Origin: Amycolatopsis sacchari
GTDB lineage: Bacteria > Actinomycetota > Actinomycetes > Mycobacteriales > Pseudonocardiaceae
Assembly (NCBI RefSeq): GCF_900114035.1
Contig: NZ_FORP01000010.1
Coordinates: forward strand, 124,001-188,000
Direction of reading: 5' to 3'
Length of the DNA stretch: 64,000 nucleotides
Below are positions 37,834 through 56,938 of the stretch, piece by piece; the stretch's first letter is position 1, and each line of letters begins with the position of its first letter. A model generated the notes under the pieces. That model did no database searches and was not told the origin of the DNA. It saw only the letters and a program-made list of their open reading frames with translations. The translations under genes were made by a program, and so were the position numbers.

Positions 37834-37834
37834 T

Positions 37835-39563: not shown

Positions 39564-39623
39564 AGACGCGGAAGCGGAGGGATTTGAACCCTCGGTGGGG
39601 TTGCCCCATGCTCGCTTTCAAGG
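39564..39623. repeat. att site 1: left end of satellite element (3' half of tRNA-Ser)
   Basis: A 60-base copy of the 3' half of the tRNA-Ser gene, from the anticodon loop to the acceptor 3' end (starts AGACGCGGAAGCGGAGGG and ends CTCGCTTTCAAGG). It differs from the tRNA copy at a few positions. To the left lies chromosomal DNA; to the right, element DNA that resembles the left end of the AICE. Confidence 0.88.
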
Positions 39624-39716
39624 TCCACGAGGTGCAGTTCGGACGTGGCCGGACCCGGTTTGACCGTAGGCGGAGGCGGCCACTGCGACGAGAGAGCGGG
39701 GATGGATGGGCCTGAA

Positions 39717-39725
39717 CTGCAACCC
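39717..39725. repeat. CTGCAACCC arm-site candidate, satellite left end
   Basis: CTGCAACCC occurs 94 bases inside att site 1. The same nonamer lies 95 bases inside att site 2 (43374-43382) and, doubled, near both right ends (43157-43176 and 56772-56791). Equal spacing at each end fits integrase arm-type binding sites. Confidence 0.5.
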
Positions 39726-39864
39726 AGGCTGCGCACGTGGCTACAGGGGCTCGGCAACTGCGCCAAGTATTCGCCCGCGGACCCACCTGCGTTGACCAGC
39801 GTGCCGCAACCTAGGGGCAGTTCGTCGAAACCCTACGAGACGAACCGCCCCAGGTTTCGGATAT

Positions 39865-42648
39865 CTAAACCTTGTACTTGCTGCTCCGCTTGCGGAACGC
39901 CTCGGGCCCCCCGTCGAGAACCTCGCACGCATGTTCCCGGATTCCACAAGAACTCAGAACATGGTCAACATCACGCTTTTCCTCGCTGTGTTCGAGCGAT
40001 CCGGACAAATAATCAAACATTCTTCCGTTTAGATTTTTCCGATCATCATCGTGGCGATTCGCGATGATTACTTGCTCTGAGTCAGCGCCGACGACTAGGT
40101 TCGCATTATGGCTTACCATCAGTATCTGTCGCTCGGATTTTCGCTTGACAAGGTATGGAACAATATTGTCATAGACAGACCTGCTATCCAGGTCGTCTTC
40201 CGGCTGATCGATCAGTAACGGCCACGCCTCCGGCGATTCCTCCAGTATAAGCGTCGGGGCGAACAGCGCTTGCTTACCAGGAGTCATTGAGGAACGCTGA
40301 AAGCCCCCAATACGGTCCCCATCCAATACAGCAAAGAAGCGGATCTCAGGTGTCGCGCACAGGACATCTGCAGACAAACCGTCAGGCGTCCAAGCAGCTC
40401 GAATTCTCTGAGTACCCACAAACATCGACAGCAAGAATTCTGAGGGTGCGTCTTGAGCCTCCTCGATTCTGGCGGTCTGTGTCGCCTTGTCTAGATACGG
40501 CCCGTGATCCCGCATGTTGAACCCCTGCGAGAGAGTCCGCTTCGTTTCCTCTGAAAATTCTATTTCGATACCGATTGTGATACCGTCATCAAGCTTATTA
40601 TTCGCATGGCCGAAGTTTTCAAACAGCTCACTAATATGCTTACCGCGATCACTAATCTGTGATTTTATCTTATCGACTTCGGCTAGCTGCTGCTCCTGCA
40701 ACCTCTTAACTACACCCTCCTGTGTGGCAATCGCAGCAAGAGTTGTTTCTTGCTTCCTGCTACTTTGCACCAGTGCATCTAGCTCAGATAAGGCTCGGTA
40801 CTTTGCAATGAGGGCCTCGTTGTCCAGCCTCAGCGATCGAGTCGCTGCACCGATCTCTGACGACTCAATTTCGAGTTCGCGCCGGTACTCTCCTATTTTC
40901 CTTCTCAAATTTTCAGTTAGCGTACTACGCGCTTCTTCGACCAGCTTGACAATCTCACTTTCAAGGTCGGAAGGCAGCGCTGAGGACGAGGGGGTGGTGT
41001 CGATACGAACCTGTACGAGCTCACTCCCGACGTAACCCCCTCCTTCGGTCATCGAGACGTAAGGCGCAACTAGATCGCTTTCCTCAGCAAGTCTCTTAGC
41101 CCGGCTCTCCTTCTCTCCGATCTCACTGACGATTCGCTGGTAAGTTTCAGTCTCTCCCGCAGTCAGATGCGATGCATCTCGCAAGGTCGCGATCTGTTCT
41201 AGAATCGCGTTATAGGTACTTTCTACCCCTTTCTTGTCACCGAGCTCCCGCAATTTGCTTACTGCCGCGGATACTTCACTTGTTAACTCGAACCAGCGAT
41301 TGACCGAAGATCGGATAGTCTTATTGCAAGCCTGAATATCAGCTTCAACCTGACGGTAAATAGCAGCGAACCGTGTATCTCTCCTAAACAACGCCGGCTG
41401 AATCTTGCTCGTTATTTCTTCGGGTCGCTCGCTAATTGCATAGAGGGAGTTTTGAGGGATGTAAATGACGCGGCCCGTTTCCGCAGCGGGATCCCCCCAC
41501 TCCACCTTGCACACGATGTTCTTTACAGAATCCCATGTCATCCCGGCGGCCGGCCCTGCGTCCTCGCGCCTTACCAAACCGGTGGCCACCTGCTGTTCAA
41601 TAGCATTTTCTGGGTCGACAGCATGGGCGATGTAGGCCAAGAGGGAGGACTTGCCCGACGAACGTGCGCCAATAATCGAGACGAGGTTCTGATTAAGAAC
41701 GACCTCCGACGGGAAGTCTTCGGTACCTGTGAAGCTAACCCTAGATATGTACTGGTAAGGCTCGCGTCGATCTGGCCGCACAGCCTGAAGCTTCACTCGG
41801 TTTTGCGGCTCGAAGTACGTTTGCTGGAGACCTTCAAAAGTGAGGTCTGCCTTTATCCACGTCGTTTCATAGTTCGTGTTTCCTTCACGCACGTGCTTAC
41901 CGAGACCGGTATCAAGGTCAGTGAAGTGATGTGCATCGCAGCCACCGAAAACCGGTTTTTGAGCGACCTGTTCGTCCCCTTCAAGGCGATCAATGTTGAG
42001 AAAGTAGCTCACATTGCGCTGGTTGCCGAAAAATGCATGTGAAAACTTGTCTATCTCGTCGCTGAGGTTTTCCTTACGTCGAGCACCACGAGTCGGACGC
42101 AGACCATCGCCTTTACACGAGGTCACCACGAGCACGTTCTCTAAGATGTCAACTTTTCGGCCAAAGGTTTCTTTTACAGCCTCGGCGATATCCTCTTTTA
42201 AGACAGTAGCTCGGCCGAAGTCGCTATGCTTGAGGTCGGCGCACGTCAGCTGTATCTGACCCGGATCGTAACACTGCGTGCGAAGCCTAGACAAGAATTT
42301 TTGAGCCACTTCCTCGCTGATATCTGGCCGAAATATAAGATGCAGATTTACTTCTTCACCTGCACCGTTAACAGCTTCGACGAGACGCAGCTCAACGTTC
42401 GGAAAGAACACTTTTTCCGAGTACGGATATAGGCGCTGGTACTCGTTTCTGAGACGGAAGTACCCGTCGAAAGAGAAGTAGTCGGTGATCCCGAAGGCAT
42501 CGACATCAGATTGCTCAAGAGTTCGGCAGAAACGTTCCCAAACTGCAGGGTCGTCGGCGTTGCCGTACTGGTTGTTCAGCTTCGTGCCCGGCGGATGCAA
42601 ATGCAAGTCCCATTTGCGCCACTCTGAACCCCTCGGGAATCGTCTCAA
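39865..42648 (-). CDS. TrlF-like PHP-domain AAA/SMC-type ATPase (probable defence gene)
   Basis: A ~927-residue protein. N-terminal PHP phosphoesterase-like domain: WDLHLHPPGTK near residue 15, DAFGITDY near 50, a later GCDAHHF near 237. ABC/SMC ATPase: Walker A IIGARSSGKSSLLAYI near 330, central coiled coil (~420-720), Walker B region in LLIDQPEDDLDSRSVYDNI and switch His in QILMVSHNANLVVG. This order is that of TrlF-family proteins, often carried in genomic islands and suspected in anti-phage defence. Base use is clearly lower in GC than the chromosome. TTG 42648 is preferred (AAGGAG nine bases upstream); TTG 42657 touches that site. Confidence 0.82.
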   Translation of the reverse strand: MRRFPRGSEWRKWDLHLHPPGTKLNNQYGNADDPAVWERFCRTLEQSDVDAFGITDYFSFDGYFRLRNEYQRLYPYSEKVFFPNVELRLVEAVNGAGEEVNLHLIFRPDISEEVAQKFLSRLRTQCYDPGQIQLTCADLKHSDFGRATVLKEDIAEAVKETFGRKVDILENVLVVTSCKGDGLRPTRGARRKENLSDEIDKFSHAFFGNQRNVSYFLNIDRLEGDEQVAQKPVFGGCDAHHFTDLDTGLGKHVREGNTNYETTWIKADLTFEGLQQTYFEPQNRVKLQAVRPDRREPYQYISRVSFTGTEDFPSEVVLNQNLVSIIGARSSGKSSLLAYIAHAVDPENAIEQQVATGLVRREDAGPAAGMTWDSVKNIVCKVEWGDPAAETGRVIYIPQNSLYAISERPEEITSKIQPALFRRDTRFAAIYRQVEADIQACNKTIRSSVNRWFELTSEVSAAVSKLRELGDKKGVESTYNAILEQIATLRDASHLTAGETETYQRIVSEIGEKESRAKRLAEESDLVAPYVSMTEGGGYVGSELVQVRIDTTPSSSALPSDLESEIVKLVEEARSTLTENLRRKIGEYRRELEIESSEIGAATRSLRLDNEALIAKYRALSELDALVQSSRKQETTLAAIATQEGVVKRLQEQQLAEVDKIKSQISDRGKHISELFENFGHANNKLDDGITIGIEIEFSEETKRTLSQGFNMRDHGPYLDKATQTARIEEAQDAPSEFLLSMFVGTQRIRAAWTPDGLSADVLCATPEIRFFAVLDGDRIGGFQRSSMTPGKQALFAPTLILEESPEAWPLLIDQPEDDLDSRSVYDNIVPYLVKRKSERQILMVSHNANLVVGADSEQVIIANRHDDDRKNLNGRMFDYLSGSLEHSEEKRDVDHVLSSCGIREHACEVLDGGPEAFRKRSSKYKV

Positions 42649-42896
42649 CCCACCCAACTCCTTGACGTCAACAGTTTACGACACCTGCCACTAGTAGGAT
42701 CACTCTTGGCGAGCGTCGGCTTCGTTCGAACGCTGTTCAAAGCGTTCAGGCGGGCGAGAATTTATCAGCTTGGCGACTTGGAAGTCGGAGGGCTCGCCGC
42801 GTTGTCGCCGAGCTTTTTCAAAGTTCTCGATCTTACGATTCGTAGGCATGCCTTCGCGGACCGCAGCCATCTACACCTAGACCGCTCCCACGCGGC

Positions 42897-43094
42897 AGTC
42901 AGACGACTACAGCGACGGCCAGTTGGGCCGTCACTCAAAGGGCTGACTGCGTCTTCACCGATGGTCGACGGTTCCCGATCGCCTACTACGACGTTCATGG
43001 ACGCTCGGTATGCATCGATGGCGACGCGGCTTGTTGGCTATTCGTAGTCCACGAGGACGACAAAGTGCTGACGCGCATAGAGGAGGGCACCTAG
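42897..43094 (+). pseudogene. 3' remnant of the AICE right-end gene
   Basis: About 200 bases strongly similar to the last part of the 156-residue gene at 56248-56718 (shared runs around GTCGACGGTTCCCGATCGCC and CATGGACGCTCGGTATGCAT). Small deletions near 42925-42955 shift the frame, and the 5' portion is unrelated DNA. The final codons and TAG are kept. It marks the old right end of a once-complete sister element. Confidence 0.75.
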
Positions 43095-43156
43095 GTACTA
43101 ACCGCAAGCCCCTGTGTTCGGATGACCCCCGCATGCGCTACACCGTAGGGGCCCTA

Positions 43157-43176
43157 CTGCAACCCGAACTGCAACC
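43157..43176. repeat. Doubled CTGCAACC arm-site candidate, satellite right end
   Basis: CTGCAACCC (43157-43165) and CTGCAACC (43169-43176), 12 bases apart, about 50 bases before att site 2. The AICE right end has the same doublet at 56772-56791. Confidence 0.5.
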
Positions 43177-43224
43177 GAGGCGGAACCGTTCCGGGCGACG
43201 TCCGGCATAACCTCCGGCCACAAA

Positions 43225-43279
43225 GCGGAAGCGGAGGGATTTGAACCCCCGGTCGGTTGCCCGACGCTCGCTTTCAAGG
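43225..43279. repeat. att site 2: junction between satellite and AICE
   Basis: A 55-base copy of the tRNA-Ser 3' half (starts GCGGAAGCGGAGGGATTTG, ends CTCGCTTTCAAGG) with compensating changes in the variable arm (GGTCGGTTGCCCGAC). It is the right end of the satellite and the left end of the AICE at once. Confidence 0.88.
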
Positions 43280-43707
43280 TCCATGAAGGGCTGTTCGGAC
43301 GCGGCTGGACCCGGTCTGACCTGGAAGGCAGGGGCAACACTGCCACGACTGGAACAACCCGAACAGGTTCGGACTGCAACCCAGACTGCACACAACCCCA
43401 CCCCGGGTCGCCTACCTGCAACCCTCCGCTCTCCAAGACCCTGAGGGGTGGTTCAAGGGGGTTCGATGATGATCGTTTCCCCTGGTCAGGACGGCGGGTA
43501 CGACTGCAGCAAAAGTTCGGCGGGCGGCGAACTGGGCCCCTCATTGAGCCCCTCTCGGACTGCGAGATGGCGCACGCATAGCGCCGCCGGTAACGCGTGG
43601 TAACACAAGGTGCGGCGACTGCGATCTTCAAACTGTCAGCGACGCGCTACGACTTTCAACCGGGCGCAACCCAAGGCGGCAAGCCTTAACAAGAGGACAA
43701 GGCAAGG
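43280..43707. other. AICE left-end non-coding region
   Basis: Non-coding. The first ~120 bases match the satellite's left end (TCCATGAAGGGCTGTTCGGA and GGACTGCAACCCAGACTGCA), including a CTGCAACCC site at 43374-43382. The remainder has no gene on either strand that I can support and leads to the promoter of the split HEPN gene. Confidence 0.6.
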
Positions 43708-44301
43708 GTGGAGAACCAAATCAAAGACGCGACGCTCTGGGAACTGGTCGAGCCGGTTGCACGTGACGCACTTCACAAAATGCATGACGCCTACACGAGA
43801 GGTTTAAATAAGGAAACGTACTGGGGTTACACCACCATAATCGAAACCCCAGAAGGAAGACAGCGGACACATAAGTCGCCACTTAAATACTCATCAGCAA
43901 TCGGGCCCGAAAAAGGCATCTTTGGCCGACAGTACACGTACGCAGAACTTGACGGCTTTTCCGACCTTCTCGCCTACACGGAGAAGACGCCCGAATATCG
44001 GAGTTTTCTTTCGCCTAAAGAAGCTGACACGGTTGGCGATAGATTGGTGCTCGTTGGCACGGCCGACCTTCCACTGGAAATCGCCGAACGACACGCACAT
44101 TGCGTCGGCTGGGAATACGACAGCGAATTCCTGAAAAGTACCTACATTGAACTCGAACGATGGTGGATAGGCGAGGGCCTAACAGTTGATTTGATAATCC
44201 CAATTCTTGGATCAACATTTAACCAATCTGATATCCCGATGCTGAAAGGGCGTCTAATAGAAACGGATGTCGGCATCCTTGCCGCAGGCCAATACCGCTA
44301 A
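43708..44301 (+). pseudogene. 5' half of a MITE-split ApeA-like HEPN gene
   Basis: The first 194 codons of a gene interrupted by a 221-bp insertion at 44290. The product is soluble and mixed alpha/beta (KETYWGYTTIIETPEGRQRT; YAELDGFSDLLAYTEKTPEY); the insertion adds three foreign codons and a stop. It corresponds to the N-terminal domain that precedes HEPN in ApeA-like proteins. Base use is low GC, like other cargo. GTG 43708 follows CAAGG. Confidence 0.7.
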
Positions 44302-44510
44302 GTTTAGGCGAGTTTCCGCAGCTCAGAGGCGTTTGGAGGCGTCGCCCACAGAGCGGTCACACCCCGACAGAACAGTTGCCTCAATTGAAGATTCCCCTCA
44401 ACCGCAACGGCGACTGTCTCAAGTGGAGAACCGCCTAACCGGCGGGAACGACTGAACAGAGCCTCCGGTAACGCCCTGACCAGGTAAAACGTACTAACTT
44501 AGCGGTATTG
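44290..44510. mobile_element. 221-bp MITE with terminal inverted repeats and 9-bp target duplication
   Basis: The left end CAATACCGCTAAGTTTAG is the inverse of the right end CTAACTTAGCGGTATTG. GCCGCAGGC directly flanks both sides (44281-44289 and 44511-44519). The interior has no ORF of note. Removing the element and one duplication restores a single frame across the gene. It is a non-autonomous insertion moved by some IS transposase; a 9-bp duplication fits IS4-type elements. Confidence 0.9.
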
Positions 44511-45359
44511 GCCGCAGGCTGGCCAGACGCAAGAATATTGAGCGGTGCCGATGAACGACTGCTATTGAGCAGCACGCACTCATGGACGTATCCGGAATTA
44601 CCGGTTCGCAGACGCCATGCATGGGGCGACATACTCGAGCCTGCAGACTATACAGCATTCGAGGAACTGAGCCTGTTCCTACAGACGCTAAAAATAACCA
44701 CTCGAGAACCAGTCGGGGTAAACCATGCAATCTATCTCCGCAACGGCTGGTCCTCTGGCTACAAGGCGGCGCTACCTTGCGCGTCACACGCATGGCATGA
44801 ACGTCGACATTTACATGGATTAGAAGATGTCCCCGAGAATCCCGTCCAGCTCGATTCGCGGCTTTTGCGCAAGCGGATTGATTCCTTAAATGCAATGTCG
44901 CCCAAGGTTAAACTGGCTTCAGAACGCCTACTTGGCGGAGCGCTCCGACAAACTCAGGTGGACCGAATTCTTGACGCATGCATCGGCCTGGAAGCCCTTG
45001 CTGGCGACGACAGTCCCGGCGACATAACCTACAAACTTGCCCTACGCACGACGGCATTACTTGCACATAATGGAGCCGATCGAGTCCATGAGATTTTCTC
45101 AGCAGCAAAGCAAATCTATCGCTACAGGTCGGCAGTGGCTCATGGGTCACCAACCGCTGATAAGAAGAGCGTGATTGACTTTGTCGGCGACAAATACCAT
45201 GCCAGCGACATAGCTGAGTTCTTTCTTGAGCAGATACTTTCCACCGTTCTAGACGAACCTGAAATTGGACCCAAGATCTCGAACGACGACCTGATTCTGG
45301 AGATGCTTCTCCGTGGCTCGAGAGTCGACAAGACTGGGGAAGCTGACACTACGGAGTAA
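44508..45359 (+). pseudogene. 3' half of the split gene: ApeA-like HEPN domain
   Basis: The last ~279 codons of the split gene. The HEPN domain lies near the end: RILDACIGLEALAGDD, ITYKLALRTTALLA, and the catalytic-type R-x4-H in YRYRSAVAHGSP. HEPN proteins of this class are RNases in abortive phage defence (ApeA) and related toxins. A frame remains open from TTG 44508, created at the insertion edge, so a truncated HEPN-only protein could still be made. Restored length is about 473 residues. Confidence 0.75.
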
Positions 45360-45369
45360 CCTCGCGCGC

Positions 45370-45690
45370 ATGACGCAAGTGTGGCAGGTCCAGATAGCGG
45401 CTCCGAGCAAGGAACACGCGACCGAGCTGGCGCGCGGAGCCGTCGAGGCGAAGCTAGCCGCTGGCGGCCAAGTCGTCGGCCCCGTGACCAGCGTCTTCTG
45501 GCACCTGGGCGAGTTCGGCACGGGCGAGGAGTGGACGGTCATCCTGAAGACGACGGAGGACCGCTACAAGGAGCTGGAGCAGCACATCGTCGAGCGGCAC
45601 GAGTGGACGAGCCCCGAGATTACGGCCATCCCGCTCGCGGCCGGGCTAGCTCCGTACCTGGAGTGGGTCGAGCGGACGCTGAGCGAGTAG
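45370..45690 (+). CDS. cutA: CutA1-family divalent-ion tolerance protein
   Basis: A 106-residue trimeric ferredoxin-fold protein: VQIAAPSKEHATELARGAVE, GQVVGPVTSVFWHLGEFGTG, EEWTVILKTTEDRYKELEQH, and PEITAIPLAAGLAPYLEWVE all match CutA1. Linked to copper tolerance in E. coli, but its biochemical role is unsettled. The chromosomal copy is usually single, so a copy on an AICE is unusual cargo. The 3' end overlaps the convergent XRE-TPR gene by 45 bases. Confidence 0.85.
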   Translation: MTQVWQVQIAAPSKEHATELARGAVEAKLAAGGQVVGPVTSVFWHLGEFGTGEEWTVILKTTEDRYKELEQHIVERHEWTSPEITAIPLAAGLAPYLEWVERTLSE

Positions 45691-47022
45691 GTCGGCCACC
45701 TCCGGCACGGATTGGTGGGGCTCCAGTCGGCTCATGACCACGCTGAGCCGCTGCTGCGGGCGGGCCGACGCCACGTCTGCGGCCAGGCCCAGTGCGCGGG
45801 TAGCCGCGGTTGCCGAGTGCTCCACCTCCCCCGCGTCCAGGTACGCCTCCGACAGCCAGGACAGGTACAGGGCCTTGTCACGCGCGTGGCTGTCGTCGTA
45901 CTGGGCCATCGCCGCTTCGAGGGCGGGTACGGCGCGGAGCGGGCGGTGCAGCTCGGTCCAGCACCGGCCGGTGATGATCTGCAGCTCGGTCGGGTTGTGC
46001 GCCCACACCGCCCAGTCTGGCCCGTAGCCCTCCCCCGCCTCACTGACCAGGGCCGCCTCCGCTTGGCCGAGTGCCCATGCGGCCTTGTCGGCTTGACCGG
46101 CCACCGCGTAGGTCCAGGCTCCGCGCTGGTAGAGCAGCGATTTCACGCCGGGATGCACACTCTTGGCCGCGATCGAGCACGACTTGTCCGTGAGGTCCAC
46201 GGCCACGTCCGTCGAGGGCAGGAGCTGGTACGAGCGGAGCGCGAGAGCGTTGGCGGCCAGGTCGACGTCGTTCGCGGCCTTCGCCGCTTCGAAGCTCTGT
46301 TCGTAGAGCATCTTGGCCTCGTTGTGCCAGCCCGCGTCGAACGCCGCCCACCCGGCCTGCTGTGCCTGCTCGGCGAAGAACGACAGCAGCTCCTGCCGGT
46401 CCGGCCCGGCGAAGCTGGCGCTCTTGAGCAGTGCGTCCGTCTTCTGCACTTCGGCGAAGTAGAGCCGGTAGGTGTCCGCGCCGCCCAGGTGGTCGTCGAG
46501 ACGGCGCAGCCGCCCGAAGCTGGCGCGCAGCTCGGCGACAGTGCTCGACCCCACGCGGTTGCCGACCGTGCGGGACGGGAGGCCCGGCAGCTGCGCCGCC
46601 AGGCCTGTCGCGGCAAGCCCCGCTCCCAGCTTCATGAAGTCGCGTCGCAGCACTGAAGGGTCTCCATCCTCGCTCGACGGTTGGGTGTGCGAGGCGTCGG
46701 CAACAGGGCGCACGTGGCGCGTGCTGGTCTCCCAGGACCGGGGTGCGAGATCCAGCATCTCCCCCGGAATGTGCAGGCCGTCCGCGACGCGTTCGAAGAT
46801 CTCGACGCGCTGCGCCTGGACGCGGCCGTTGATGTAGTCCTGCACTCGCGAGACGGTCAGCTCGCATCGCCGGGCCAGGTGGGACGCGGTGAACCCGACG
46901 CCTCCCCATCGCTTTGCCAGGCGCAGTACTTCGCCGAGATTGCGTTCAGCACACGCCTGCCGGAAGTCCGCTCGCGCGAGCACTTCCGGCGGTAGGTGAT
47001 CTGCTGGCCGTTGCCTTGCCAC
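45646..47022 (-). CDS. XRE-type HTH regulator with TPR-like C-terminus
   Basis: A 458-residue protein. Residues ~28-90 are an XRE helix-turn-helix (FTASHLARRCELTVSRVQDY). The C-terminal ~280 residues are helical, TPR-like (for example LSFFAEQAQQAGWAAFDAGW and KALYLSWLSEAYLDAGEVEH). Between them is a twin-arginine-like hydrophobic segment, RRDFMKLGAGLAATGLAA at about 126, a peculiar feature repeatedly seen in this actinobacterial regulator class although the protein should be cytosolic. Common AICE passenger; probably senses a peptide or host state. A palindrome upstream may be its operator. Confidence 0.8.
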   Translation of the reverse strand: MARQRPADHLPPEVLARADFRQACAERNLGEVLRLAKRWGGVGFTASHLARRCELTVSRVQDYINGRVQAQRVEIFERVADGLHIPGEMLDLAPRSWETSTRHVRPVADASHTQPSSEDGDPSVLRRDFMKLGAGLAATGLAAQLPGLPSRTVGNRVGSSTVAELRASFGRLRRLDDHLGGADTYRLYFAEVQKTDALLKSASFAGPDRQELLSFFAEQAQQAGWAAFDAGWHNEAKMLYEQSFEAAKAANDVDLAANALALRSYQLLPSTDVAVDLTDKSCSIAAKSVHPGVKSLLYQRGAWTYAVAGQADKAAWALGQAEAALVSEAGEGYGPDWAVWAHNPTELQIITGRCWTELHRPLRAVPALEAAMAQYDDSHARDKALYLSWLSEAYLDAGEVEHSATAATRALGLAADVASARPQQRLSVVMSRLEPHQSVPEVADLLAQRPLDPLQVRS

Positions 47023-47075
47023 GTCCTCGATCCTCCCCCAGGTCGGGCCGAAAACTCCCTTGTTACTGACGAGTT

Positions 47076-48151: not shown

Positions 48152-48405
48152 TGTCGGCCTTCGAGGTCCTGCAACGGTTCGGCACCACGGCACTGCTGAA
48201 GTTCGCCGCCGCTGTGGTCGTGTTCCTGCTGCTGCACCTGCTGCGTATCCCGCTGGTCGTCCTCGCGCGGGTGCTGGAGGTGTCCATGCGGCGCCTTGAC
48301 GGCTACGCGACCAAACAGGCGAGCAAGCCACCCACCGGGCCGATCAACCAATTCTTCCGTCCCACCAACGCTTTCCGGGAGGAGTCCAGCAATGTCCACG
48401 CCTGA
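48151..48405 (+). CDS. small AICE membrane protein, one helix
   Basis: An 84-residue protein with a single transmembrane helix (KFAAAVVVFLLLHLLRIPLV) and a polar tail. Unknown role, in the transfer operon between the HTH protein and another small membrane protein; its stop lies within the start region of the next gene (14-base overlap). Probable Spd-type accessory of mycelial spread. Confidence 0.7.
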   Translation: MSAFEVLQRFGTTALLKFAAAVVVFLLLHLLRIPLVVLARVLEVSMRRLDGYATKQASKPPTGPINQFFRPTNAFREESSNVHA

Positions 48406-48694
48406 GCACACCCCCGACACGACCGAGCTGGATACGCGTCGACGCGCCTTGGCTGCTGTCTACGCGCACACCACCGAACCGACTCGCGCCACTCGCGCGA
48501 TCTCGTGGGCCGGTTGGCACCTGGGCGAAATCGCGGGCGTGACTGTCCCTTTGGGACTCGCGCTGACGGTCTGGGACGGCTTCTACGCGTTCTCCGGCGT
48601 GGCCGCTGTCTGCTGGGCCGTGCATGAGGTGCGACTGCAGCTCAAGCAGCGCGCGATCCGCGCGGCTGCTGAGGCGAAGGAGGTGCGGCGATGA
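48392..48694 (+). CDS. small AICE membrane protein, two helices
   Basis: A 100-residue protein: polar N-terminus of ~45 residues, two helices (IAGVTVPLGLALTVWDGFYA and FSGVAAVCWAVHEVRLQL), basic tail. GGGAGGAG precedes the ATG by seven bases and lies inside the previous gene; its end overlaps the DUF2637 gene (ATGA). Role unknown, probably in transfer. Confidence 0.7.
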   Translation: MSTPEHTPDTTELDTRRRALAAVYAHTTEPTRATRAISWAGWHLGEIAGVTVPLGLALTVWDGFYAFSGVAAVCWAVHEVRLQLKQRAIRAAAEAKEVRR

Positions 48695-49815
48695 ACTGGC
48701 GTGAGGAACGACGCGCGGACCGGATCGCCGAGGCACAGATCAGGCGCGAGGAAGCGGCTGCTCAGGCACAGGTCCGCATCGCCGAGCAGTCCGCGGCTGC
48801 CCAGCAGCGCCGGGCCGACGAGCAGGCCCGCGCCGAGGCCCGCCGTGCCGAGCAGGACCGGCGTCGGGGGCGGCGCGCGGCGCGTATGGCCCGCATCCGG
48901 ACCTGGACGAGCGCGCACGCCGTTGACCTCCTGATTTACCCGCTCGCGCTGGTATCGGCTGTGCTGGCGGTTCCGGCGATGGCCGCCTACGGCCACCAGG
49001 TGTACGGCAACGCCACGGGCTACGCCCTGTTCTGCATCACCGAACTCGGGATGTGGGCCTTCGCCCTGGCCGTCCAGATCACCCGGCACCGGAACCCGGA
49101 ACGGCCTGTGTGGGCGCTGCAGCTCGGCGTGTGGGCCTTCGCCGCCGTCGCGTTCGGTGTGAACGCCCTGCACGGCGCCGAGCGCGGGTTCTCCCCCGCC
49201 GTCGTGATGGGTATCGGCTCGATCGCCGGAGTGCTGGCGCACCAGCTCATCACTGCCGGGCACCTCCGGTCCCGGCTGGAACGGACGCAGGCGAGGATCG
49301 AGCGCCAGGCGGCGCGCAAGGTCGCGCGGGTGCAGCGCACTGCGGTGCGCCAGGCGGTTGCCGAAATCGCCACCGACGGCACCGCCCGCCTCGTATACGC
49401 CCCCGGCCGGTACGTGATCGCCAGGAGTCGCGTTACCCGGCGGCCTCGACTTGAAGCCGCGATCGTGCCCGGCCTGCCGACCGGCGAGTCGGCCGACTGG
49501 GACCGGGAGTTGGCCGACCTGCTGGCGACGCACCGGCCCTCGATCGACCCGACCGACGGCACCCTTGGTACCGGTCCAGTGGCGACCCTCGATCCCGATC
49601 CTGAGCAGCAAAAATCGACCCCCAACCGATCGAAGGTCGGTGGTCGTCCGAGCCGCACCATCGCACAGCTCCGGGCCGAGCTGAAGCGGGCCATGAAGGC
49701 CCGCCCTGGCTCGATCGATCCGACCTCTGCCGAGTCGATCCGCAAGGCGCTGCGCTGCTCTCCTGCGCGCGCTCGGCAGCTCCGCGACGAACACCGCCAG
49801 GGAGGCACGAAGTGA
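48691..49815 (+). CDS. DUF2637 (SpdB-like) membrane protein
   Basis: A 374-residue protein. The N-terminal ~65 residues are an Ala/Glu/Arg coiled coil; four helices follow (~80-190: LIYPLALVSAVLAVPAMAAY; FCITELGMWAFALAVQITRH; VWAFAAVAFGVNALHG; VVMGIGSIAGVLAHQLITAG), typical of DUF2637 proteins in AICEs and actinomycete plasmids; the C-terminus has an HTH-like segment (SIRKALRCSPARARQLRDEH). Likely works with the FtsK-like transfer protein encoded next by GTGA overlap. Confidence 0.82.
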   Translation: MNWREERRADRIAEAQIRREEAAAQAQVRIAEQSAAAQQRRADEQARAEARRAEQDRRRGRRAARMARIRTWTSAHAVDLLIYPLALVSAVLAVPAMAAYGHQVYGNATGYALFCITELGMWAFALAVQITRHRNPERPVWALQLGVWAFAAVAFGVNALHGAERGFSPAVVMGIGSIAGVLAHQLITAGHLRSRLERTQARIERQAARKVARVQRTAVRQAVAEIATDGTARLVYAPGRYVIARSRVTRRPRLEAAIVPGLPTGESADWDRELADLLATHRPSIDPTDGTLGTGPVATLDPDPEQQKSTPNRSKVGGRPSRTIAQLRAELKRAMKARPGSIDPTSAESIRKALRCSPARARQLRDEHRQGGTK

Positions 49816-52013
49816 GCACCGACAACGACCGTGAGGAGCTGGCGCGCGTGCACTACCTGCCGAGCCACAACGGCGCTGATACGGAGGTGATCGAGGGCGA
49901 GCTGATCAGCGATGAGGAGTACGCGTTGCTGACGAGCCAGAAAGCGCAGGCACTGGAGCGCTACCGGGGCTACCGCCGCGACGCGGTGACTGTCTACAAG
50001 GGTGTCCGCTACGCGGCGACGCACGACTACACGAAGACGGCGGGTAAGACGCTGATGCGGCACGGCTCCTATGTGCTGGGTGGTGCGGGGGTGCTGGCGA
50101 AGCGGGTGTGGGAGGCCAAGACCAACTCCCGCTATGAGCGGCTGCTGCGGGCGGCGGAGGTGCAGGGCGACTGGGAGCGGCTGGGCGAGTGGGAGCAGCG
50201 CGCCGAGCAGGCCCGCGAACACCGCCACCGCCGCCGCATGGACTGGCTCGACGCCCCCGCGAAGCTGGTCAAGGCCGTCGTCATCGGCGCCGCCTCGCTG
50301 ATCGGGTTCCTGTTCGCGCTCGGGATCGTGCTGGCCGTCGCCTCCAAGGACCTGGGCAAGATCCTGGGGCCGATCGAAGCCCTGCTGCAGCTGGTGCAGT
50401 GGATCGCCTGGGTCGTGACCGTGGTGTGGGGGCCGCTGGTGCTGGCCGCCCCGTGGGTGGTGGTGCTGGCGCTGTGGAACATCGGCCGGCGGGCCGGGGC
50501 CGCCCCCTCCTGGCTGTCCACCGGCGGGCAGCGCTCCGGTGAGGGAGAGCCCATCACGCCGTCGATCGTGGTCACCGCCCTACGCGACCTCGGGATAGCC
50601 AAGCTGGCGACGGCCATCAAGGAGATGGGAGACGCGGGAGCGTCGATGCTAGGACCGATCCGGCTCGCAGGATGCGGCGTCGAAGTCGACGTGACCCTTC
50701 CCAGCGGCGTCACCACCGAGGAGGTACAGCGCAAGCGCCGCAAGCTCGCCGAAAACCTGACCCGCCACGAGCACGAAGTGTTCATCACCATCCCCCAAGC
50801 CGCCCGCACCGTGCGGCTATGGATCGCCGACAGCGGCGCCCTCGACGAACCGATCGGGCCGTCTCCGCTGGTCACCGACCCCGACACCACCGCCGACCTC
50901 TACACCGGCCGCGCACCCTGGGGACAGGACCTCCGGGGCGACGCCGCCGCGATCGCGCTCCTGCAGCGGCACCTGCTGATCACCGGCCTGTCCAACCAGG
51001 GCAAAACCGCCGCGCTGCGGGCACTGGTGCTGTGGCTGGCGCTGGACACCTCGACCGAATTCCGGATCGCCGACCTCAAGGGCGTGGGTGACTGGCGCAT
51101 GTTCGAGGGCCTAGCGACCCGCCTGATCCAGGGACCGACCGATGAGCACGTCATCGCCACCACCGAGATGCTGGAAGAAGGCGTAGCGGAGATGGAGCGG
51201 CGCATTGCCGCGCTGGAAGCCTCCGGCGCCACGGATGGCGTCACGCGGGAAATGGCCCGCTACCCCGGGTCCGGGTTCCACCCGATCTTCCTGGTCGTCG
51301 ACGAAGCCCAGGTGGCATTCATGTGCCCCGCCATCGGGGAGGACAAGCGGCCCTATGGCGGGACGAAGAACACCAGCCGCTACTTCATGGCCGCCCGCAA
51401 AATCCACAACCAGGGGCGCGCGGTGAACGTGCACCTGTGGCAGGGCACCCAAGACCCCACCGACCAGAACCTCCCGAAGCTGGTGCGCGAAGGTGCCCAC
51501 ATCCGGGCCTCGCTGGTCGTGGGCACGGAGGAACAGGCCCGCATGGCACTCGGGGACAAGGCCGTCAACGGTGGCGCGGCGCCGCACAAGCTCCGGCAGG
51601 GCGCGGACAAGGGCACCGTGGTCGTCGCCGGAGACGGCGTGCCCCTCCCGGCCGGGCAGGCGTCGATCACGATCCGCACGCACTTCATCAACGGTGAGGA
51701 CGCCACCGAGGTCGCCGAGCGCGCCAAGACCCGCCGAGGCACGGTGATCACGGCCGAAGAGGGGCCAGAGGAGCGGGACCTGCTCGACGACGTGGCCGAG
51801 GTTCTGGGCACCGAGGCCGCCGTCAAGGCCACCGACGTCGCCGCCCGGCTGCGCGAACTGGCACCCGAGCACACGGACTACCGCAAGCTCACCGCCGAGG
51901 GCCTGGCCGCCTGGCTCGCGAGCGAGGGTGTGGTGGTCAAGAAGGTCAACGGCACCCTCACCGTCCGTGCCCGCATGATCCACGCCGCACTCGCCGACCG
52001 CGACGACGACTAG
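49812..52013 (+). CDS. FtsK/SpoIIIE-type DNA transfer ATPase (TraB-like)
   Basis: A 733-residue protein. Two helices near 155-180 and 195-230 anchor it; a FtsK ATPase domain follows with Walker A LITGLSNQGKTAALRALV (about 390) and Walker B HPIFLVVDEAQVAFM. The C-terminal ~70 residues are a winged-helix-like region (VKATDVAARLRELAPEHTDY), the position of the TraB gamma domain that reads clt repeats. In AICEs this single hexameric motor moves double-stranded DNA between hyphae. Start GTG overlaps the preceding stop. Confidence 0.9.
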   Translation: MSTDNDREELARVHYLPSHNGADTEVIEGELISDEEYALLTSQKAQALERYRGYRRDAVTVYKGVRYAATHDYTKTAGKTLMRHGSYVLGGAGVLAKRVWEAKTNSRYERLLRAAEVQGDWERLGEWEQRAEQAREHRHRRRMDWLDAPAKLVKAVVIGAASLIGFLFALGIVLAVASKDLGKILGPIEALLQLVQWIAWVVTVVWGPLVLAAPWVVVLALWNIGRRAGAAPSWLSTGGQRSGEGEPITPSIVVTALRDLGIAKLATAIKEMGDAGASMLGPIRLAGCGVEVDVTLPSGVTTEEVQRKRRKLAENLTRHEHEVFITIPQAARTVRLWIADSGALDEPIGPSPLVTDPDTTADLYTGRAPWGQDLRGDAAAIALLQRHLLITGLSNQGKTAALRALVLWLALDTSTEFRIADLKGVGDWRMFEGLATRLIQGPTDEHVIATTEMLEEGVAEMERRIAALEASGATDGVTREMARYPGSGFHPIFLVVDEAQVAFMCPAIGEDKRPYGGTKNTSRYFMAARKIHNQGRAVNVHLWQGTQDPTDQNLPKLVREGAHIRASLVVGTEEQARMALGDKAVNGGAAPHKLRQGADKGTVVVAGDGVPLPAGQASITIRTHFINGEDATEVAERAKTRRGTVITAEEGPEERDLLDDVAEVLGTEAAVKATDVAARLRELAPEHTDYRKLTAEGLAAWLASEGVVVKKVNGTLTVRARMIHAALADRDDD

Positions 52014-53165: not shown

Positions 53166-54499
53166 CGACGACCACCGACACCGTGGCCGCGATCGACGAA
53201 GTGATCGGTACCTGCAACCAGTGCGGGCGACCGCTCGGCGAGTCCCCTTCGGATGACTTCTGCTCGGAGAACTGCCAGCAGGTCTGGCGCTCGGCGAACC
53301 GCGTTGTCATGGCCGGGCACGAGGTGCTGGACCAGGTGCGCGACTTTGTGGCACGGTTCAACGTCTTCCCGTCCGAGCACTGCGCACCCATGCTCGCGCT
53401 CTGGTACGCCCACACTCACGCCGCCGACCACTTCTACGTCACGCCACGCCTGATCCTGTCCTCAGTGGAACCCGGCTCCGGGAAGACGCGGGTACTGGAA
53501 GTGGCTCAGTTCCTCGTGCGGGCACCGGAAATGACGTTCTCCGCGACCACGGCCGCGCTGTTCCGCATGGTGTCCGAAGGACCGATCACGATCCTGTTCG
53601 ACGAAGTGGACACCATCTTCGGCGGCAAGAACGGCGGCAACAATGAAGACCTCCGGGGCCTGCTCAACGCGGGCTACAAGCGTGGCGCGACCGTCGCCCG
53701 GTGCGTCGGTGATGCCAAGGCGATGAAGGTGCAGAGGTTCCCCGTGTTCGCCCCGGCCGCGCTCGCGGGCATCGCCGGGAACATGCCCGACACGATCACG
53801 ACCCGCGCGATCACCGTGCACATGAAGCGCCGCCGCGATGACGAAGAGGTAGACGAGTTCTGGGAAGAGGAGGTCGAAACCGAGGCGGCGCCGCTGCGGG
53901 ACGCGCTCGCGGCGTGGGTGGATTCCGTGACGGACAAGATCAGCCGGGGACGGCCCACGATGCCGCCCGGTGTGCGGGACCGTTCCGCCGAGATCTGGCG
54001 CCCGCTCATCGCGATCGCCGACGCGGCAGGCGGGCACTGGCCCGACACCGCTCGCGCGGCCTGCCTGCACTTCGTCGAAGTCGCCAACACCGACCGCAGC
54101 GGCGGCGGCACGCGGGTCCGGTTGCTCGCCGACCTCCGTGAGGTGTTCAGCGCCGCGCGCGCCGACGAGCTACCCACCGCCGCGATCCTCGACGCCCTGA
54201 CCGGAATGGAGGAAGCCCCCTGGGCCGACCTCGACGGCAAGCCGCTCGACGCCCGCCGACTGGCCCGCGAACTGAAGCCCTACGGCGTCACGTCGAAGAA
54301 CGTCCGGCTGCCCGGCGACAAGGTGGCCAAGGGCTACCACGTGACCGGCGACGGCGGCCTTGCCGACGCCTGGAGCCGCTACCTGCCTGCCACCGCTACG
54401 AGCGCTACAGGCGCTACCGCGCAGGCCAGAGGCGTAGCGGATACGGAGGGCGTAGCGGACGCAACCGCTACAGCCGTCCGGCCACCCCCGCCGTCGTGA
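53162..54499 (+). CDS. DUF3631 helicase-like protein with N-terminal zinc ribbon
   Basis: A 445-residue protein. The N-terminus has CNQCGRPL and CSENCQQVW (four Cys, residues ~18-40), a treble-clef-like zinc site; then an AAA-like core with Walker A SSVEPGSGKTRVLEVA (about 100) and Walker B ITILFDEVDTIFGGKN, followed by DUF3631 (~190-360). It is the replicative helicase/initiator partner of the prim-pol. The last ~45 codons run into the CGCTAC/GTAGCG repeat region, so the Ala/Thr-rich tail may be shaped by DNA constraints. Confidence 0.85.
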   Translation: MTTTTDTVAAIDEVIGTCNQCGRPLGESPSDDFCSENCQQVWRSANRVVMAGHEVLDQVRDFVARFNVFPSEHCAPMLALWYAHTHAADHFYVTPRLILSSVEPGSGKTRVLEVAQFLVRAPEMTFSATTAALFRMVSEGPITILFDEVDTIFGGKNGGNNEDLRGLLNAGYKRGATVARCVGDAKAMKVQRFPVFAPAALAGIAGNMPDTITTRAITVHMKRRRDDEEVDEFWEEEVETEAAPLRDALAAWVDSVTDKISRGRPTMPPGVRDRSAEIWRPLIAIADAAGGHWPDTARAACLHFVEVANTDRSGGGTRVRLLADLREVFSAARADELPTAAILDALTGMEEAPWADLDGKPLDARRLARELKPYGVTSKNVRLPGDKVAKGYHVTGDGGLADAWSRYLPATATSATGATAQARGVADTEGVADATATAVRPPPPS

Positions 54500-54584
54500 C
54501 CACGCCGTAGCGGACCCAAGCGCTACGCCCCCCGTATCCGCTACCGCCCTGACCAGGCACGTAGCGCCAGTAGCGGACGTAGCG
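54377..54584. repeat. CGCTAC/GTAGCG iteron-like cluster (candidate oriV)
   Basis: Thirteen copies of CGCTAC or its complement GTAGCG within about 210 bases, in both orientations, covering the end of the DUF3631 gene and the gap before xis. Few would be expected by chance. Lying beside the replication genes, they are good candidate sites for the prim-pol/DUF3631 initiator or for the excisionase. Confidence 0.8.
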
Positions 54585-54632
54585 CTCCCAGCCAGCTCAG
54601 TCCCACCCGCACGACCCGCAGGAGCAAGACCA

Positions 54633-54854
54633 GTGGAGACCGCCAGCATCCCGACCGAAGACCCGACCAGCCCGCGTGTGCTGCTGACCGTCGAGGACGC
54701 CGCGAAGGCCCTCAGCATCGGCCGCACCACCATGTACGCGCTCATCAAGGCCGGGCACATCGCCACCGTCCAGATCGGCCAACTCCGCCGCGTTCCGACA
54801 ACCGCGCTCGCGGCCTACGTCCAGCAGCTCACGACGCAGCAGAGCGCTGCCTGA
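54633..54854 (+). CDS. excisionase (Xis-like, MerR-type HTH)
   Basis: A 73-residue protein: LLTVEDAAKALSIGRTTMYA, then LIKAGHIATVQIGQLRRVPT, the typical excisionase winged helix of AICEs. It steers the integrase towards excision. AGGAG lies eight bases before the GTG start, and the integrase gene follows after 17 bases. Confidence 0.87.
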   Translation: METASIPTEDPTSPRVLLTVEDAAKALSIGRTTMYALIKAGHIATVQIGQLRRVPTTALAAYVQQLTTQQSAA

Positions 54855-54871
54855 TCAACGAGGGGGAAGAC

Positions 54872-56173
54872 ATGACACGCAGGAAGCGCCCCGAGGGCAG
54901 CCGCCGACCAAACGGCGCGTCGAGCATCTACTTGGGCAGTGACGGGAACTGGCACGGCTGGGTCACGATGGGAGTGCGTGACGACGGAAGCCCTGACCGG
55001 CGACACGTCAAGCGCAAGGACGAGGCCGCCGTGATCGACGCGGTTCGCGAACTCGAGAAGCAACGTGATGCCGGAAAGGTGCGCAAACCGGGCCGCGCCT
55101 GGACGGTCGAGAAATGGCTGACGCACTGGGTCGAGAACATCGCCGCTCCGTCAGTCCGCAGGAACACGCTCGTCGGATACCGGGCGGCCGTGTACGGCCA
55201 CCTCATCCCTGGAATCGGAAAACACCGGATCGACAAGCTGCAGCCGGAGCACCTGGAGACGCTGTACCGGAACCTCGCGAGCAAGAAGGGGAAGCACGGG
55301 AAGGTCCTTCGTCCGGCGACCATTCACCAGGCGCACCGCACCGTGCGAACGGCGCTTGGAGAGGCAGTGCGCCGCGGACACATCACGTCGAATCCCGCGC
55401 AGATCGCCCGGCCGCCGCGAATCCCCGAGGAAGAGATCATCCCGTTCACGAAGGAAGAAGCCGCTCGAATTCTCCGCGCCTGCCAGCACCGGCGCAACGG
55501 CGTGCGATTCGTCATCGCGCTGACGCTCGGCCTTCGGAAAGGTGAAGCCCTGGGGTTGCAGTGGCGAGACGTCGATTTCGCCGCTCGCACTCTGTCGGTT
55601 CGTCGGTCGCTGCAGCCGGTGAAGTGGCAGCACGGATGCACCCCGGAGAATCCGTGCGGACGTCGACACGCTGGGCATTGCCCGGACCGGCACGGCGGCG
55701 GCGCGATCGCACAGGAAGTGAAGTCTCGGGCCGGGCGGCGGGTGGTCGCCATTCCCGTGCCGATTTTGGAGGCGCTGCGCCAGCACCAGCGCGACCAGCT
55801 CCAGGAGCGCGAGCAGGCCGGGAACCTCTGGCAGGACGAGGGCTGGGTGTTCGCGAGCCCGATTGGGAAGGCCGTTCATCCCCGAACTGACCACGACGAG
55901 TGGAAGGACCTGTTGAAGGCCGCGAAGGTGCGGAACGCGCGCTTGCACGACGCCCGGCACACCGCCGCGACGATGCTGCTCGTGCTCGGCGTGCCCGGCC
56001 GGGCAGTGATGGAGGTGATGGGCTGGTCTCACGTCGGAATGACGTCCCGCTACCAGCACATGACGAGTGAGCTGATGACCTCGATTGCTGATCAGATCGG
56101 TGGGTTCTTCTGGGCCGAGGACGACCAGGACGACGGAGATGAGGGTTCGGCAGGCCAACCGGTAGCTGTCTAA
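54872..56173 (+). CDS. tyrosine recombinase (AICE integrase)
   Basis: A 433-residue integrase: N-terminal arm-binding region, SAM-like core-binding domain (WTVEKWLTHWVENIA; IDKLQPEHLETLYRN), and a catalytic domain with ALTLGLRKGEALGLQW (first Arg), HDARHTAATMLL (His-x-x-Arg) and SHVGMTSRYQHMTSEL (Tyr nucleophile). A Cys/His-rich insert (HGCTPENPCGRRHAGHCPDR, about 250) within the catalytic domain is typical of this AICE group. It recombines the tRNA-Ser 3' end 680 bases downstream. GAGGGGG precedes the ATG. Confidence 0.95.
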   Translation: MTRRKRPEGSRRPNGASSIYLGSDGNWHGWVTMGVRDDGSPDRRHVKRKDEAAVIDAVRELEKQRDAGKVRKPGRAWTVEKWLTHWVENIAAPSVRRNTLVGYRAAVYGHLIPGIGKHRIDKLQPEHLETLYRNLASKKGKHGKVLRPATIHQAHRTVRTALGEAVRRGHITSNPAQIARPPRIPEEEIIPFTKEEAARILRACQHRRNGVRFVIALTLGLRKGEALGLQWRDVDFAARTLSVRRSLQPVKWQHGCTPENPCGRRHAGHCPDRHGGGAIAQEVKSRAGRRVVAIPVPILEALRQHQRDQLQEREQAGNLWQDEGWVFASPIGKAVHPRTDHDEWKDLLKAAKVRNARLHDARHTAATMLLVLGVPGRAVMEVMGWSHVGMTSRYQHMTSELMTSIADQIGGFFWAEDDQDDGDEGSAGQPVAV

Positions 56174-56247
56174 ATTCTTCGGGAACCGCGGCTGCTCGCC
56201 GTGCGTTAATGATCCTGGCCCGATATCGCTAGGTAAGGGAGCTGAAA

Positions 56248-56718
56248 TTGGACGAGGTGACGATTGTTGATCGCGTCCAGGTCGACATTGACGACTTGGG
56301 AAAGCTCGCCGATCACGTCGCCATTCCACCTGCCGAACAACTTGAGGTGGTCTACGTCAACACCGAAAGCGGAGGTCGACGCACGCGGCGCGTTTACGGT
56401 TTCACCGCAGGAGGTGATGCACTCGTCGTGCCTAACAGCGGTGCCCGTCTCGTGGCCGCTCATCGGGAGGCCAAGCCGAACGAACGTCTCCACATTCGGC
56501 GGCGGTCAGACGACTACAGCGACAGGCCCGTTGGGCCGTTCACTCCAGCCCCCAAGGGGCTAACTGCCGTCTTCACCGACGGTCGACGGCTTCCAATCGC
56601 CTACTACGACGTTCATGGACGCTCGGTATGCATCGATGACGACGCGGCTTGTTGGCTATTCGTAGTTCACGAGGACAACGAAGTGCTGGCGCGCGTCGAG
56701 GAGGAACCTACCTACTAA
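56248..56718 (+). CDS. hypothetical protein at the AICE right end
   Basis: A 156-residue soluble protein of unknown function, with IPPAEQLEVVYVNTESGGRR, RLHIRRRSDDYSDRPVGPF and ACWLFVVHEDNEVLARVEEE. A frameshifted 3' remnant of the same gene is at the right end of the satellite element, so it belongs to the element family's right terminus. TTG 56248 has AAGGGAG six bases upstream. Confidence 0.7.
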   Translation: MDEVTIVDRVQVDIDDLGKLADHVAIPPAEQLEVVYVNTESGGRRTRRVYGFTAGGDALVVPNSGARLVAAHREAKPNERLHIRRRSDDYSDRPVGPFTPAPKGLTAVFTDGRRLPIAYYDVHGRSVCIDDDAACWLFVVHEDNEVLARVEEEPTY

Positions 56719-56771
56719 CCGTAAGCCCCTGCGCTCGGATGACCCCCGCACGCGCTACACCGTAGGGGCTA

Positions 56772-56791
56772 CTGCAACCCGAACTGCAACC
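56772..56791. repeat. Doubled CTGCAACC arm-site candidate, AICE right end
   Basis: CTGCAACCC (56772-56780) and CTGCAACC (56784-56791), about 60 bases before the tRNA-Ser att copy, matching the doublet at the satellite right end and single copies at both left ends. Confidence 0.5.
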
Positions 56792-56848
56792 TAGGCGGAG
56801 CCATGCCGGGCGAGCGCACATGCCTCGCCCGGCATATCTGCTGGTGAG

Positions 56849-56907
56849 AGACGCGGAAGCGGAGGGATTTGAACCCCCGGTGGGTTGCCCCACGCTCGCT
56901 TTCAAGG
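56849..56907. repeat. att site 3: AICE right end within tRNA-Ser
   Basis: The 59-base region shared with att sites 1 and 2 covers the 3' half of the tRNA-Ser gene up to the anticodon loop (ends CTTTCAAGG). The identity stops exactly where the tRNA's 5' half begins, defining the crossover segment. Confidence 0.88.
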
Positions 56908-56938
56908 CGAGTGCATTCGGCCGCTCTGCCACGCTTCC
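56854..56938 (-). tRNA. tRNA-Ser (anticodon UGA)
   Basis: On the minus strand: acceptor arm GGAAGCG pairs with CGCTTCC, D-arm with GCAGAGCGGCCGAATGCA, anticodon stem CTCGC/GCGAG with loop CTTGAAA (anticodon TGA), a long variable arm GTGGGGCAACCCAC as required for serine, and T-arm CGGGGGTTCAAATCCCTCCG. CCA is not encoded. It is the AICE integration site and remains intact because the element restores the 3' half. Confidence 0.95.

What the first reader, a model, noticed from the sequence alone, without database searches (positions are those of the whole stretch)
39564..56938. Tandem integration at one tRNA-Ser: satellite (CIME) next to a complete AICE
Three copies of the tRNA-Ser 3' half split the region into a 3.7-kb unit with both ends but no integrase or replication genes and a 13.7-kb complete AICE. 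The small unit's left and right ends resemble those of the AICE, and it keeps a decayed copy of the AICE right-end gene. This is a clear accretion array in which the satellite could be excised and transferred by the AICE machinery. CIMEs are described for streptococcal ICEs; I know of few for AICEs.
Basis: partly seen in the sequence, partly recalled or inferred. Interest (0 to 1): 0.82.

Follow-up and report, generated by a model that had tools for sequence, protein, structure and literature searches.

The report
One-gene passenger beside a conjugative element
A bacterium, probably an actinomycete, carries side by side at one tRNA gene a mobile element and a tiny stripped-down relative that keeps only the two ends and one defence-like gene; such pairs are already known, and this is a very small example.

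Summary
Three direct copies of the tRNA-Ser(TGA) 3' part (39568, 43225, 56853) bound a 3.66-kb unit and a 13.6-kb AICE. Similarity runs beyond the att core at both ends, above all shuffles, with CTGCAACC motifs at similar spacing that look like integrase arm sites. The AICE has tyrosine integrase, Xis-like, FtsK-type Tra, Prim-Pol, DUF3631/RepAM and GntR genes. The small unit has none of these: it holds one apparently intact large gene, a TrlF-family AAA-like ATPase, and a truncated copy of the AICE right-end gene. Eight of 18 congeners have a near-empty site with one att copy in the stretch read; G010 has a related AICE without the small unit. The unit is best read as a CIME: a deletion remnant of a related AICE, reduced to left end, cargo and right end. 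Its left end differs from the neighbour's about as much as two AICEs differ, so a recent deletion of that copy is unlikely. It lacks the AICE's origin/clt-like repeat cluster, so movement as a 17.3-kb composite is likelier than alone. Excision is untested. CIMEs beside actinomycete elements are published (XSAM1/pSAM2; TR1/TR2). New member of a known kind.

The parts
39568..39623 (.). att1: tRNA-Ser 3' part; outer (left) boundary of the array
39624..39745 (.). CIME left end with one CTGCAACC arm-like motif at 39717
39865..42657 (-). TrlF-family AAA-like ATPase, 930 aa, apparently intact; GC 52%
   Evidence: NCBIfam NF045780, 496 bits, cut-off 350, profile 1-944 of 944; GC
42703..42870 (-). small ORF (56 aa) upstream of trlF; no significant match in other loci fetched by then
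42892..43224 (.). CIME right end: truncated, frame-shifted copy of the AICE right-end gene, then two CTGCAACC motifs (43157, 43169)
43225..43279 (.). att2: CIME/AICE junction
43280..43410 (.). AICE left end, CTGCAACC at 43374 (another just outside, at 43416)
43708..45359 (+). AICE left-end cargo: two ORFs (43708-44301, 44508-45359) either side of a MITE-like insert
45646..47022 (-). NsdA-family regulator
   Evidence: NF053720, 237 bits
47417..48331 (-). GntR-family regulator (ORF as listed; start not settled)
   Evidence: PF00392, 61 bits, residues 201-264
48296..49815 (+). two ORFs upstream of tra (48296-48694, 48691-49815; Spd-like by position only)
   Evidence: no Pfam hit:
49812..52013 (+). 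FtsK/SpoIIIE-type Tra (TraB-like)
   Evidence: PF01580
52131..53165 (+). Prim-Pol
   Evidence: PF09250
53162..54499 (+). DUF3631 (RepAM-type) replication protein
   Evidence: PF12307; called RepAM in PMC3218068
54376..54584 (.). cluster of 13 GTAGCG/CGCTAC repeats overlapping a 92-nt imperfect inverted repeat; candidate replication origin or clt (inference)
   Evidence: 13 copies in the same place in G010
54633..54854 (+). Xis-like HTH protein
   Evidence: PF12728; PHROG excisionase families
54872..56173 (+). tyrosine integrase
   Evidence: PF00589, PF14659
56248..56718 (+). AICE right-end gene, 156 aa, unknown
56772..56791 (.). AICE right-end arm-like motifs CTGCAACC at 56772 and 56784
56853..56938 (-). 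att3: intact tRNA-Ser (TGA)

Best explanation
The 3.66-kb unit is a CIME: a reduced lineage of an AICE family that inserts in the 3' half of tRNA-Ser(TGA). A past deletion removed everything between the left-end cargo slot and the middle of the right-end gene. What remains is the left end, one cargo gene (trlF) and the right end. A related AICE integrated in tandem on the tRNA side, probably later. The AICE integrase and Xis should act on any pair of the three att sites, giving a 13.6-kb AICE circle, a 3.66-kb trlF circle and a 17.3-kb composite. Only circles that contain the AICE carry Tra, Rep and the candidate origin/clt, so trlF most likely moves in cis as the composite and can then re-seed the tRNA site of a recipient. 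Shown: anatomy, homologous ends, no mobility genes seen in the unit, near-empty sites and an AICE-only site in relatives. Inferred: deletion origin, order of arrival, recombination, transfer, and a defensive role for trlF.
For: Three direct att copies with shared ends. CTGCAACC: 7 of 11 copies in the window lie in four end segments that total 530 bp (segments drawn after the motif was seen); the G010 AICE has the motif in its left end and, in its right end, one exact copy and one with a changed first letter. Left-end signature (core, 85-115 bp, motif) in 4 of 390 family genomes, this one included, and right-end signature in 6 of 390; reversed-pattern control 0. G010 has a related AICE alone between att and tRNA: 83.7% over 10.85 kb, no trlF match. 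Eight of 18 congeners have the conserved left flank within about 1.1 kb of the tRNA and no second att copy in the stretch of about 20 kb read. trlF lies in the place that corresponds to the left-end cargo slot of both AICEs: low-GC ORFs here, an OLD-like ATPase/TOPRIM gene in G010. Reduced units occur at the same tRNA elsewhere in the family: 6.2 kb with int and xis matches but no tra/rep match (G350), 2.9 kb with only a C-terminal part of int (G261).
Against: No excision or transfer data. Left ends of CIME and AICE are only about 70% identical outside the core (86 of 122), so recognition by the AICE integrase is plausible but not assured. The CIME right end has lost 12-13 bp between arm motifs and core; the outer motif then sits 109 bp from the core, close to the 110 bp of the AICE inner motif (positions). 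The right-end gene is 89% identical between CIME and resident AICE (133 of 149), closer than the left ends and without a counterpart in the aligned G010 right end: the two right ends may share a closer history or have exchanged sequence, which the simple separate-lineage picture does not explain. The unit was not found alone or beside another AICE in 386-390 family genomes, one per species, so repeated mobility is not shown.
Confidence: 0.72

Rival explanations
1. Dead remnant: the small unit once belonged to an AICE but its ends are no longer recombined; it is simply left between att scars.
For: Right-end gene decayed, 12-13 bp lost from the right end, no other genome found with the unit. G012 shows a 1.8-kb stretch with a degenerate att copy beside the tRNA.
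Against: 14-bp core identical in all three copies, arm-like motifs present at both ends, trlF ORF apparently intact.
Confidence: 0.2
2. The unit is a small integrative satellite that uses the AICE in trans for excision, replication and transfer.
For: Both ends are kept; size is small.
Against: No integrase seen. The GTAGCG cluster is 13 copies in this AICE and in G010, at most 1 per 210 bp in the CIME. Not found without the AICE in the genomes searched.
Confidence: 0.05
3. A single 17.3-kb AICE with an internal duplicated att, the trlF unit being part of its normal cargo.
For: The composite could excise as one (inference).
Against: The internal att has right-end sequence on its left and left-end sequence on its right, which means two complete elements; G010's AICE ends at the equivalent of att2.
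Confidence: 0.03

Closest known systems
XSAM1 beside pSAM2 (Streptomyces ambofaciens ATCC 23877), called a CIME in PMC4891641 (whole text)
   Same: CIME immediately adjacent to an AICE
   Different: XSAM1 is 42 kb; this unit is 3.66 kb with one large gene. As recalled, a different tRNA; sequences were not compared here.
Thaxtomin region TR1 (CIME) / TR2 (ICE) in scab Streptomyces, as described in PMC8369830 (passages)
   Same: Tandem units split by an internal att; one unit is needed for mobilisation of the other
   Different: Site is aviX1, not a tRNA; sizes 20 and 157 kb; thaxtomin cargo; excision and transfer reported there from cited work
AICE/DAICE accretion at tRNA-Arg in a Streptomyces population, PMC9513070 (passages)
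   Same: Array of elements with a traB-less remnant between repeats at a tRNA; mobilisation in cis proposed
   Different: Other tRNA and other elements; sequences were not compared here
Streptococcal ICESt1-type CIMEs (recalled; Pavlovic 2004 seen only as a reference in PMC3218068)
   Same: Ends of an ICE without its mobility genes, in tandem with it
   Different: Different phylum and conjugation mechanism (recalled)

Membership tests
CIME (cis-mobilizable element) | flanked by attL and attR related to those of an ICE | tested here: met
CIME (cis-mobilizable element) | no recombination or conjugation genes of its own | tested here: met
   only one large ORF, trlF; short ORFs not all scanned
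CIME (cis-mobilizable element) | tandem accretion with an ICE that shares its att | tested here: met
CIME (cis-mobilizable element) | mobilised in cis by that ICE | not testable with these tools
   needs junction PCR and mating
AICE (13.6-kb unit) | integrase, FtsK/SpoIIIE-type Tra and RepSA/RepAM/Prim-Pol in one unit (criteria read in PMC3218068) | tested here: met
   PF00589, PF01580, PF12307, PF09250
AICE (13.6-kb unit) | site-specific integration in a tRNA, flanked by direct repeats | tested here: met
   near-empty sites in relatives
AICE (13.6-kb unit) | excises, replicates and transfers | not testable with these tools
   needs culture work
IME | own integrase and mobilisation gene or origin | tested here: not met
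   no integrase or mobilisation gene seen in the unit; an origin was not assayed
TrlF family (39865-42657) | NCBIfam NF045780 above its curated cut-off | tested here: met
   496 vs 350 bits
TrlF family as an anti-phage system | protects against phage | not tested
   only partial matches to defence models (PADLOC Ppl, 73 bits, C-terminal part; NCBIfam Ppl 78 bits, far below its cut-off of 1000); TrlF's own role unproven in PMC7554251 (passages)

The most novel reading that the evidence does not exclude
The left-end slot of this AICE family is a dock for single large defence-type genes, and deletion of the AICE core turns such an element into a minimal one-gene defence cassette (left end, gene, right end) that an incoming AICE of the family can pick up in cis and carry to the tRNA site of a new host.
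Probability: 0.25. Interest if true: 0.55.

Novelty: new member of a known kind. Interest (0 to 1): 0.33.

Why it matters
It is a compact, testable case of how conjugative elements shed their machinery and leave a single useful gene still bounded by recombination sites. With three resolvable junctions and a neighbour that has the full gene set, cis-mobilisation in AICEs could be measured directly. If the reading is right, immunity-type genes could spread as very small passengers that AICE finders based on int/rep/tra would miss.

Tried and rejected
Considered the small unit as a recent deletion of the neighbouring AICE: thought unlikely because left ends differ about as much among CIME, AICE and G010 (CIME-AICE 70.5%, CIME-G010 76.3%, AICE-G010 74.4%); the 89% match in the right-end gene points the other way and is told under evidence against. 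Considered region 36272-39563 as a further element: it separates the conserved left flank (ending near 36270) from att1, but no exact att core lies there and a weak match (68.6% over 137 bp) to the gene at 38926-39552 lies left of the far att in G016, so it is treated as accessory chromosome. Compared the 60 nt next to the tRNA in 18 relatives with the left sides of the three att copies, to tell native from element flank: inconclusive, att1 and att3 score alike in many. Looked for clustered 8-mers and for GACCCGGA-type clt words (recalled): no GACCCGGA cluster in AICE or CIME. The search of solved structures with TrlF gave 0 hits at E<=0.01. PHROGs gave nothing for TrlF or the right-end gene. 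tRNA genes near 11 of the 80 distant TrlF loci kept showed no pattern (in L056 a tRNA-Ala lies close beyond trlF, but with its 5' side towards the gene). Literature searches for TrlF in phage defence listed no paper on it (listings only). No tool named the source organism; only genus and family codes are known.

Ten of the 18 congeners are not near-empty: G010 and G015 carry an AICE; six (L040, L045, L047, L048, L049, L050) have about 2 to 9 kb of other DNA between left flank and tRNA, of which L045 (G012) has a degenerate att; in two (L034, L043) no left-flank match lay within the stretch read. G003 (L047) has a right-end signature and int fragments at the tRNA but no second core in the stretch read.

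Dropped before counts: AICE-interior matches under 80 bp were not printed; output was cut, so the figure for L050 comes from its all-against-all part; one search kept 80 of at least 579 TrlF loci; the weak 33-60 bp matches that lie more than 45 kb away or on other contigs were not counted as att copies of this array.
Full report
Observation. The window has an intact tRNA-Ser(TGA) at 56853-56938 on the minus strand and two partial direct copies of its 3' part at 39568-39623 and 43225-43279. The three copies share GCTCGCTTTCAAGG, found nowhere else in the window, and diverge right after it. The polarity is informative: att2 has right-end sequence on its left and left-end sequence on its right, so two elements with both ends lie head to tail.

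Ends. Right ends of the two units (42892-43225, 56499-56853) are identical in 294 of 358 columns; left ends in 82 of 125 (a slightly different cut gives 86 of 122). Local alignment scores were 432 and 59 against maxima of 35 and 32 in 300 mononucleotide shuffles each. CTGCAACC occurs 11 times in the window; 7 copies lie in four end segments, 530 bp in all, drawn after the motif was seen: 39717, 43157, 43169, 43374, 43416, 56772 and 56784. The copy at 43416 has no counterpart in the CIME. The G010 AICE has the motif in its left end and, in its right end, one exact copy and one with a changed first letter. I read them as arm-type integrase sites (inference). The CIME right end lacks 12-13 bp of the stretch next to the tRNA part, which puts its outer motif 109 bp from the core; the AICE inner motif is at 110 bp (positions).

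The AICE. It has a tyrosine integrase, an Xis-like HTH protein, an FtsK/SpoIIIE-type Tra, Prim-Pol, DUF3631/RepAM, a GntR protein and an NsdA-family regulator. This meets the int/rep/tra criteria used in PMC3218068 (passages). Between the Rep and Xis genes lies a cluster of 13 GTAGCG/CGCTAC repeats in about 210 bp, with 13 copies in G010 too; the CIME never exceeds one per 210 bp. I take it as a candidate origin or clt (inference).

The small unit. It carries 39865-42657 (-), a full-length TrlF-family AAA-like ATPase by NCBIfam (496 bits, cut-off 350), GC 52% against 68.5% for the AICE core, one 56-aa ORF upstream of it, and a truncated frame-shifted copy of the AICE right-end gene. TrlF is rare in the family: 2 of 386 genomes at E<=1e-30, this one and G215, where it matches in two pieces at 53-54%. 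In named genomes relatives are scattered over many phyla; the best actinobacterial one listed is Agromyces, 48% in its best segment. This fits horizontal spread. TrlF takes its name from a Photorhabdus temperature-restriction operon; the passages read leave its own role open (PMC7554251).

Relatives. In the genus search (19 genomes with this one) the 18 others match the tRNA, and the tRNA-Ser(TGA) and matching right flank are present in the 18 stretches read. Eight of 18 (L035, L037, L038, L039, L041, L042, L044, L046) have the conserved left flank, which ends near window 36265, within 161-1062 bp of the tRNA's 5' end, and show no second att copy in the stretch read. Four of 18 have another att copy within 45 kb: G010 (14 kb away), G015 (11.8 kb), G012 (1.8 kb, degenerate), G016 (43 kb). 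G010 carries a related AICE alone, 83.7% identical over 10.85 kb, with no trlF match. The remaining congeners hold other DNA there (listed under Tried and rejected). In 390 family genomes the left-end signature occurs in 4 (this one, G010, G272, G350) and the right-end signature in 6 (this one, G003, G010, G261, G272, G371), with 0 for the reversed-pattern control. Of these, G272 and G371 hold fuller AICE-like elements between two cores. G350 has a 6.2-kb unit with int (in three tblastn pieces, so perhaps broken) and xis but no tra/rep match, and an IS5-type transposase gene. G261 has a 2.9-kb unit with only a C-terminal part of int. These look like stages of reduction at one site.

Model. In the resident AICE and in the G010 AICE the slot next to the left end holds cargo: here two low-GC ORFs either side of a MITE-like insert, in G010 an OLD-like ATPase/TOPRIM gene. 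TrlF sits in that slot in the small unit. One deletion from above trlF into the right-end gene of a related AICE would make the CIME. Left ends differ about as much among CIME, AICE and G010 (CIME-AICE 70.5%, CIME-G010 76.3%, AICE-G010 74.4%), so I read the CIME as an independent lineage rather than a fresh deletion of the neighbour. Against that, the right-end gene is 89% identical between the two resident units and is not shared with the G010 right end, which may mean a closer shared history or exchange at that end. Without Rep, Tra or the repeat cluster, the unit should move as part of the 17.3-kb att1/att3 composite (inference).

Known ground. CIMEs next to AICEs or ICEs of actinomycetes are in print: XSAM1/pSAM2 (PMC4891641, whole text), TR1/TR2 (PMC8369830, passages), accretion with a traB-less remnant (PMC9513070, passages), tandem Frankia AICEs that excise singly and jointly (PMC3218068, passages). 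Searches for AICE with CIME and for CIME with defence terms listed no one-gene defence-type CIME beside an AICE (13 of 13, 15 of 25 and 15 of 39 papers listed; listings only, open-licence papers only).

Limits. Draft assembly (72 contigs; the window is internal to one 229-kb contig). No read data, so no evidence on excision. The defence role of trlF is inferred from family likeness only.

Noticed in passing
window 44289-44511: MITE-like 223-bp insert, 16-bp terminal inverted repeats, between two ORFs of the AICE cargo; 20 near-full copies at 99-100% in this genome, this one included, plus 4 partial, so probably recently active. In the 6 loci checked (this copy included) it is 223 bp with a 7-bp duplication at its edges; the outermost TIR base varies.
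   Followed up: partly
L158, L160, L161, L162 (and similarly L159), flanks of the MITE-like insert: Four of the 6 copies checked sit in the same short palindrome-like target (AGCCTGCCCGCCGGCGAGGCA, either strand), which suggests insertion into a repeated hairpin sequence. L158 and L161 have identical flanks and might be copies of one locus.
   Followed up: no
L033:15929-17869: The G010 AICE carries an OLD/GajA-like ATPase-TOPRIM gene in the left-end cargo slot.
   Followed up: partly
window 44508-45359: The 283-aa cargo ORF has an R-x4-H stretch reminiscent of HEPN domains (my recall); no Pfam hit, only a weak PHROG match of unknown function.
   Followed up: no
L154:2005-3881: In G012 a 1.8-kb stretch between a degenerate att copy and the tRNA holds a cytochrome P450 gene; no integrase was seen among its ORFs.
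   Followed up: partly
L184:9094-15270 and L185:1011-3967: Reduced units at the same tRNA-Ser in other genera: int plus xis matches without tra/rep, and a C-terminal part of int with a WYL-domain regulator.
   Followed up: partly
L051:13066-13188 (G016): The att copy 43 kb from the tRNA in G016 has AICE right-end-like sequence with an arm motif on its left (85.6% to window 56783-56906), a hint of another element or of a native flank that resembles the right end.
   Followed up: no
window 36272-39563: 3.3 kb of accessory DNA between the conserved left flank and att1, without an exact att core.
   Followed up: partly
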